Shown here: piece by piece, positions 35,097 to 35,531 of the stretch
Layout: each line of letters opens with the position of its first letter
Numbering within the stretch: the stretch's first letter is position 1
Source: Vibrio fluvialis
Lineage (GTDB): Bacteria; Pseudomonadota; Gammaproteobacteria; Enterobacterales; Vibrionaceae
DNA: 64,000 bases
Reading direction: 5' to 3'
Assembly (NCBI RefSeq): GCF_900460245.1
Contig: NZ_UHIP01000001.1
Coordinates: 744,001-808,000 of the forward strand
Translations under genes and position numbers: made by a program
The notes under the pieces: generated by a model
Database searches by the model: none
The model's input: only the letters and a program-made list of their open reading frames with translations
What the model was told of the DNA's origin: nothing

Positions 35097-35531
35097 TTGA
35101 ATAAAAACATGAAAATCCTTATTGTTGACGATTTTTCAACAATGCGCCGTATTGTAAAAAACCTTCTTCGTGACCTGGGTTTCAACAACACTCAGGAAGC
35201 GGACGATGGCTTGACGGCTTTGCCTATGCTTAAAAAGGGTGAATTTGATTTCGTGGTGACAGATTGGAATATGCCTGGTATGCAAGGCATTGATCTTCTG
35301 AGAAACATTCGTGCGGATGAAGAGTTGAAACATCTTCCTGTCCTGATGATCACAGCTGAAGCAAAACGTGAGCAGATCATCGAAGCAGCTCAAGCGGGCG
35401 TTAACGGTTACATCGTTAAGCCATTCACAGCGAGCGGCGACTCTGAAAGAAAAACTAGAAAAAATCTTCGAGCGTCTCTAAAACTTTCGTTTAGACAAAA
35501 GTTTGCTCTATTCAAACGCGTGAAAGGCTAA
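35097..35531 (+). pseudogene. cheY: Chemotaxis response regulator CheY with a frameshifted C-terminus
   Basis: The first ~110 residues are a normal flagellar CheY: the acidic pair in LIVDDFST, the phospho-acceptor aspartate in VVTDWNMPGM, the threonine in MITAEAK and the lysine in YIVKPF. After KPFTA the frame changes: the sequence acagcgAgcggcgactctg should read acagcggcgactctg, giving TAATLKEKLEKIFERL and a stop at 35479-35481 as in other vibrios. The extra 4 bases (about 35430-35436) make the frame run to 35531 with 32 unrelated basic residues replacing helix alpha-5. TTG at 35097 is the likely start (GGAGG 5 bases upstream); ATG 35109 and GTG 35085 are alternatives. Either a natural mutation or a sequence error. 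Confidence 0.8.

What the first reader, a model, noticed from the sequence alone, without database searches (positions are those of the whole stretch)
35097..35531. cheY carries an apparent 4-bp insertion that destroys its last helix
Up to KPFTA the protein is a normal flagellar CheY. There the DNA reads aca-gcg-a-gcg-gcg-act-ctg; removing four bases restores TAATLKEKLEKIFERL and a stop at 35479-35481, which is the ending I know from other vibrios and leaves the usual gap to cheZ. As written, 32 unrelated basic residues follow. Helix alpha-5 is part of the face that meets FliM, CheZ and CheA, so chemotaxis should fail although all other che genes look intact. The insertion is next to a GCG-rich slippage-prone run.
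Basis: partly seen in the sequence, partly recalled or inferred. Interest (0 to 1): 0.75.

Follow-up and report, generated by a model that had tools for sequence, protein, structure and literature searches.

The report
Frameshifted cheY in a Vibrio genome
In this one Vibrio genome a small duplication of four DNA letters has scrambled the tail of CheY, the protein that tells the flagellum when to reverse, so the strain probably swims without steering; this looks like an ordinary recent loss-of-function mutation in one lineage.

Summary
The cheY frame (35097-35531) is normal up to KPFTA (codon 112), then has four extra bases at an exact AGCG-AGCG tandem (35429-35436), and 32 unrelated, mostly basic or neutral residues follow. 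Every relative inspected (80 named, 19 handle loci, 29 top genus loci; overlapping sets) keeps the normal last helix. A search of 5.8 billion proteins with the tail found one sequence, on three contigs. The old frame downstream is undecayed (one synonymous difference from the nearest relative), so the event is recent. cheY is the only gene with a C-end mismatch above 15 residues among 45 window genes compared with G087 and 48 compared with G023. The genome is complete and very probably Vibrio fluvialis; the other chemotaxis parts checked are intact, and the nearest paralogue is CheY4-like, a type reported not to bind FliM in V. cholerae. Best reading: a real, recent duplication that removes helix alpha-5 and most or all CheY output, so chemotaxis should fail. 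The phenotype is inferred, and an isolated sequence error is not excluded. Ordinary: a strain-specific loss-of-function allele, useful mainly as a warning about this reference genome.

The parts
35097..35531 (+). cheY (cluster II / CheY3 type), frame-shifted; 144 aa as read from TTG 35097
   Evidence: receiver domain 7-112 over Pfam cut-off
35429..35436 (+). AGCG AGCG tandem; the six relatives aligned have four bases fewer here
35433..35528 (+). 32 residues of unrelated tail replacing helix alpha-5
35437..35481 (+). undecayed remnant of the native last helix in the other forward frame, with its stop
35481..35504 (+). short inverted repeat (10-nt arms, 90% complementary, 4-nt loop) between the native cheY stop and cheZ, now inside the shifted frame
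35539..36255 (+). cheZ, intact; the only CheZ match of the genome
36265..38535 (+). cheA, intact
38561..39691 (+). cheB, intact
39701..40477 (+). ParA-type ATPase (ParC of polar chemotaxis arrays, name from recall), intact
40470..41450 (+). CheW-domain protein, intact; 98% identical to a Vibrio fluvialis protein
41488..41982 (+). cheW, intact
34329..35063 (+). sigma factor upstream (fliA by position, name from recall), intact

Best explanation
A genuine, recent four-base tandem duplication arose, probably by replication slippage, in cheY of one Vibrio fluvialis lineage, in nature or in culture. The gene now encodes a receiver whose active-site half is normal but whose helix alpha-5 is replaced by a foreign tail ending just before cheZ. 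Without alpha-5 the alpha4-beta5-alpha5 face that docks FliM (and CheZ) is lost and the domain is probably less stable, so CheY-P no longer reverses the motor. Cells should be motile, biased to the default (counter-clockwise) rotation, and not chemotactic. Shown: the sequence change, its absence from the relatives inspected, its recency, intactness of the neighbours. Inferred: slippage, loss of FliM binding, the phenotype.
For: Exact tandem of four bases and a four-base gap in six of six aligned relatives. Normal end in 80 of 80 named relatives, 19 of 19 handle loci and 29 of 29 non-own loci among the 30 best genus matches. Tail search: one protein, one member sequence, 3 contigs. The 14 codons downstream in the old frame: 1 synonymous and 0 non-synonymous differences from G087; codons 1-112: 30 synonymous, 1 non-synonymous. 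Control model has alpha-5 at 112-125, mean pLDDT 92.3; the window's model has mean pLDDT 50 over 111-120 and below 50 at 112-115. Passages of PMC3774744: FliM docks on alpha4-beta5-alpha5, K122 of alpha-5 is placed to pair with FliM D12, only CheY3 is reported to switch the motor, CheY4 did not bind FliM. Nearest paralogue here matches 4HNR and 4H60 best (that these are V. cholerae CheY4 is recalled). Passages of PMC10956519: a V. alginolyticus cheY nonsense mutant swims smoothly, locked CCW. Passages of PMC5854121: multi-base indels are common among spontaneous indels in V. fischeri and V. cholerae.
Against: No raw reads and no second strain of the species could be compared. The same paper reports that deletions outnumber insertions and that most V. 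fischeri indels fell in tracts of three or more units, which this site is not. The receiver core still models well and a low-confidence helix is drawn at 117-143, so partial function is not excluded. No other sign of chemotaxis decay was seen (46 MCP-signal matches over cut-off), as expected if the change is recent but also if it were an error.
Confidence: 0.72

Rival explanations
1. Sequencing or assembly error: the cell has a normal cheY.
For: A conserved gene with an undecayed remnant frame looks the same when the error is in the read-out; no reads are available; the three contigs with this protein may be copies of one assembly, since the longest has exactly the length of this chromosome (3,169,234).
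Against: Error-prone platforms mostly miscount homopolymers (recall), not exact four-base tandems. No other C-end mismatch above 15 residues in 45 genes against G087 or 48 against G023. Complete two-contig genome, completeness 100, contamination 0.73.
Confidence: 0.2
2. The tail replaces alpha-5 well enough: a working, altered CheY with a basic helix, possibly with changed FliM or CheZ affinity.
For: Model draws a helix at 117-143 with mean pLDDT 64 over 121-140; D11, D12, D56, T86, Y105 and K108 are kept.
Against: Residues 112-115 below pLDDT 50; the first ten tail residues are all polar or glycine; the tail search found no relative; T114, L115, K118, L119, K121, F123 and R125 are invariant in the 37 aligned relatives and lost here.
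Confidence: 0.05
3. A reversible switch or recoding: the site toggles by slippage, or a few ribosomes or polymerases return to the old frame.
For: Tandem repeat at the lesion and A-rich codons downstream.
Against: Only two units, so not a phase-variable tract; RNA fold of the region unremarkable (z -1.00); none of the relatives inspected carries the arrangement.
Confidence: 0.03

Closest known systems
Vibrio cholerae CheY3 (structures 3TO5, 4HNS, 4LX8; that these codes are CheY3 is recalled, the table says only CheY)
   Same: Alignment covers residues 1-117 with few differences; gene before cheZ in cluster II (PMC11940527, passages)
   Different: CheY3 keeps alpha-5; here it is replaced by 32 foreign residues
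Vibrio alginolyticus cheY mutants NMB93 and NMB136 (PMC10956519, passages read)
   Same: Lesions in the same gene in chemotaxis-deficient strains; NMB136 is CCW-locked and smooth swimming
   Different: Those come from a mutagenised collection and NMB136 is a nonsense codon; here a four-base tandem in a reference genome
Vibrio cholerae CheY4 (4HNR, 4H60; codes recalled)
   Same: Paralogue of the same fold; its best match in this genome lies on contig 2
   Different: Reported not to bind FliM (PMC3774744, passages), so no expected stand-in
Motility changes in reference-strain stocks, e.g. C. jejuni NCTC 11168 (PMC6700657, passages read)
   Same: Stocks of one reference strain differ in motility; a fliR frameshift was seen in two
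   Different: Other organism and gene; no proof that the present lesion arose in culture

Membership tests
CheY (motor-switching chemotaxis response regulator) | Receiver domain | tested here: met
   PF00072, 106.6 bits against cut-off 30.2, residues 7-112
CheY (motor-switching chemotaxis response regulator) | Acid pocket, phospho-Asp, switch Thr/Tyr and Lys (roles recalled) | tested here: met
   D11, D12, D56, T86, Y105, K108 invariant in 38 sequences including this one
CheY (motor-switching chemotaxis response regulator) | Gene order sigma factor-cheY-cheZ-cheA-cheB | tested here: met
CheY (motor-switching chemotaxis response regulator) | Helix alpha-5 completing the FliM/CheZ face | tested here: not met
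   Sequence replaced from residue 113; model below pLDDT 50 at 112-115; control intact. Filed as a broken cheY allele, not as a working CheY
CheY (motor-switching chemotaxis response regulator) | Binds FliM when phosphorylated and reverses the motor | not testable with these tools
   needs protein or cells
Phase-variable simple-repeat gene | Tract of three or more tandem units that varies in length | tested here: not met
   two units only; no direct-repeat family found at 35380-35560

The most novel reading that the evidence does not exclude
The tail forms a substitute basic helix, so this lineage carries a functional but re-tuned CheY with altered motor bias or CheZ control; or the lesion was selected because non-reversing cells gained something in the strain's niche or in culture.
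Probability: 0.06. Interest if true: 0.45.

Novelty: new member of a known kind. Interest (0 to 1): 0.2.

Why it matters
If real, a complete, species-representative Vibrio genome belongs to a strain that probably cannot steer: chemotaxis and soft-agar data from it would not represent the species, and its annotated CheY should not seed models or primers. If an error, a reference record needs correction. Either way it is decided by one PCR. It does not open a new biological question by itself.

Tried and rejected
Conserved long C-terminus: not seen in any relative inspected, and the tail search returned only the window's own protein (that search sees only proteins sharing exact short words). Low-quality assembly with many frame breaks: rejected for the part of the window compared. 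A first screen flagged six pairs: four are antisense shadow frames and two lie in real genes (560-1333 and 13580-14575) but only against G010, while G087 and G023 agree with the window there at the C-end; that screen did not flag cheY because its lost end is short, so one search is the relevant one. G010 itself shows 14 of 58 C-end mismatches, cheY included, and was not used for judging intactness. G087 stretches reach only to about 52 kb of the window, so the last 12 kb were compared less well. A second CheY that could take over: best paralogue is 41% identical and CheY4-like. Structured recoding signal: RNA fold not special. A decayed chemotaxis system: not seen; the one MCP match flagged with a stop runs past its ordinary end.

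Naming the strain: the plasmid collection gave no match, and an accession recalled for V. furnissii was not held; the species rests on one neighbouring protein, 98% to V. fluvialis against 81% for the next cluster. Paper searches for a described V. fluvialis cheY lesion or spontaneous cheY frameshifts showed nothing on point in the listings seen (20 of 47 listed; 21: 1 of 1; 22: 12 of 21; 47: 12 of 14; 48: 10 of 10; 49: 5 of 5; 59: 12 of 61; 68: 8 of 137). Passages of PMC12270135 and PMC4139957 were looked at and not used.

Limits: of 204 genus genomes with a match (227 searched) only the 30 best loci were inspected. Of 8000 scored CheY proteins only the 120 listed were inspected: 119 have a recognisable alpha-5 (112 by pattern, 7 by eye, one of them with a divergent last turn) and P0001 does not. 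The named, handle and genus sets share genomes. The structure alignment gives the tail no true homologues, which alone lowers its confidence.

Full report
What is there. The window lies on contig 1 (3,169,234 bases) of a complete two-contig genome of 4.86 Mb. At 35097-35531 an open frame encodes a receiver protein (Pfam PF00072, residues 7-112) between a sigma factor gene and cheZ, cheA, cheB, a ParA-type ATPase and two CheW-domain genes. It aligns along residues 1-117 with solved CheY chains, best with 3TO5 and 4HNS (recalled to be V. cholerae CheY3). After KPFTA the frame changes and 32 unrelated residues follow.

Is it an insertion? In a DNA alignment all six relatives included share a four-base gap at one place, where the window reads AGCG twice in a row. 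The downstream DNA in the other frame still spells ATLKEKLEKIFERL and stop, with one synonymous and no amino-acid difference from the nearest relative G087; codons 1-112 show 30 synonymous and 1 non-synonymous codon differences. So the gene was under strong constraint until very recently.

Is it shared? The native ending is present in 80 of 80 named relatives, 19 of 19 handle loci and the 29 non-own loci among the 30 best of 204 matching genus genomes; these sets overlap, and the other 174 genus matches were not inspected. A search with residues 105-144 in 5.8 billion proteins found one protein, the window's own, one member sequence on three contigs. A search with the whole protein scored 8000 and listed 120; 119 of the 120 have a recognisable last helix. 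A neighbouring CheW-domain protein is 98% identical to a V. fluvialis protein whose cluster holds 133 member sequences, the next cluster being 81% identical. The species is therefore very probably V. fluvialis; if those members are V. fluvialis strains the lesion is rare in the species, but strains could not be compared one by one, and the three contigs may be copies of one assembly.

Is the sequence good? cheY is the only gene with a C-end mismatch above 15 residues in 45 window genes compared with G087 and in 48 compared with G023; against G003 it is one of 3 in 24 (the other two are a 31% identical match and a 23-residue end difference). G010 has 14 of 58 such mismatches and looks itself indel-rich. 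This argues against a generally poor assembly, not against one isolated error.

What does it do to the protein? A model of a normal Vibrio CheY from 37 sequences has alpha-5 at 112-125 with mean pLDDT 92.3. The model of the window's protein keeps the beta/alpha core, but mean pLDDT falls to 50 over residues 111-120, residues 112-115 are below 50, and a helix at 117-143 is drawn with mean pLDDT 64 over 121-140; the tail has no true homologues in the alignment, which alone lowers confidence. Passages of PMC3774744 state that FliM docks on the alpha4-beta5-alpha5 face of V. cholerae CheY3, that K122 of alpha-5 is placed to pair with FliM D12, that CheZ shares the face, that only CheY3 is reported to switch the motor and that CheY4 did not bind FliM. 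The phospho-acceptor site is untouched, so the protein, if stable, might still take phosphate from CheA without an output; this is inference.

Could something replace it? The CheY query matches 61 places in the genome, itself included; the best after itself is 41% identical and matches 4HNR and 4H60 best (recalled to be V. cholerae CheY4). It lies within 10 kb of two MCP matches, a CheR and another receiver gene on contig 2. One CheZ, two CheR and one FliM match have no stops in the matched parts, and 46 MCP-signal matches are over cut-off, the single one flagged with a stop being read past its normal end. So the pathway is otherwise kept as far as tested.

Mechanism and phenotype. A four-base tandem duplication by slippage fits the sequence. 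Passages of PMC5854121 report that multi-base indels are common among spontaneous indels in V. fischeri and V. cholerae; against a simple fit, deletions outnumber insertions there and most V. fischeri indels fell in tracts of three or more units. The expected phenotype is that of a cheY-null vibrio: passages of PMC10956519 describe a V. alginolyticus cheY nonsense mutant swimming smoothly with CCW-locked rotation. A side effect on cheZ translation is conceivable because the shifted frame ends seven bases before the cheZ start instead of 57; untested.

Verdict. It is most likely a strain-level loss-of-function allele of a known gene, recent and apparently rare; an isolated sequence error remains the main rival. 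No new kind of system is involved.

Noticed in passing
handle G010, loci L111-L114: A near relative whose genes show many apparent frame breaks against the window (14 of 58 C-end mismatches, cheY included), suggesting an indel-rich assembly; unsuitable as a reference for intactness.
   Followed up: partly
window 35481-35504: Inverted repeat AAACTTTCGT/ACAAAAGTTT between the native cheY stop and cheZ, in a spacer that differs among the vibrios aligned.
   Followed up: no
window 16300-19650: 1116-aa frame that is only 69% identical in G087 and 48% in G023 while genes on both sides are mostly 85% or more in G087: a fast-changing gene.
   Followed up: no
window 35529-35539: The shifted cheY frame ends seven bases before the cheZ start, so translation coupling to cheZ could differ from other vibrios.
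   Followed up: no
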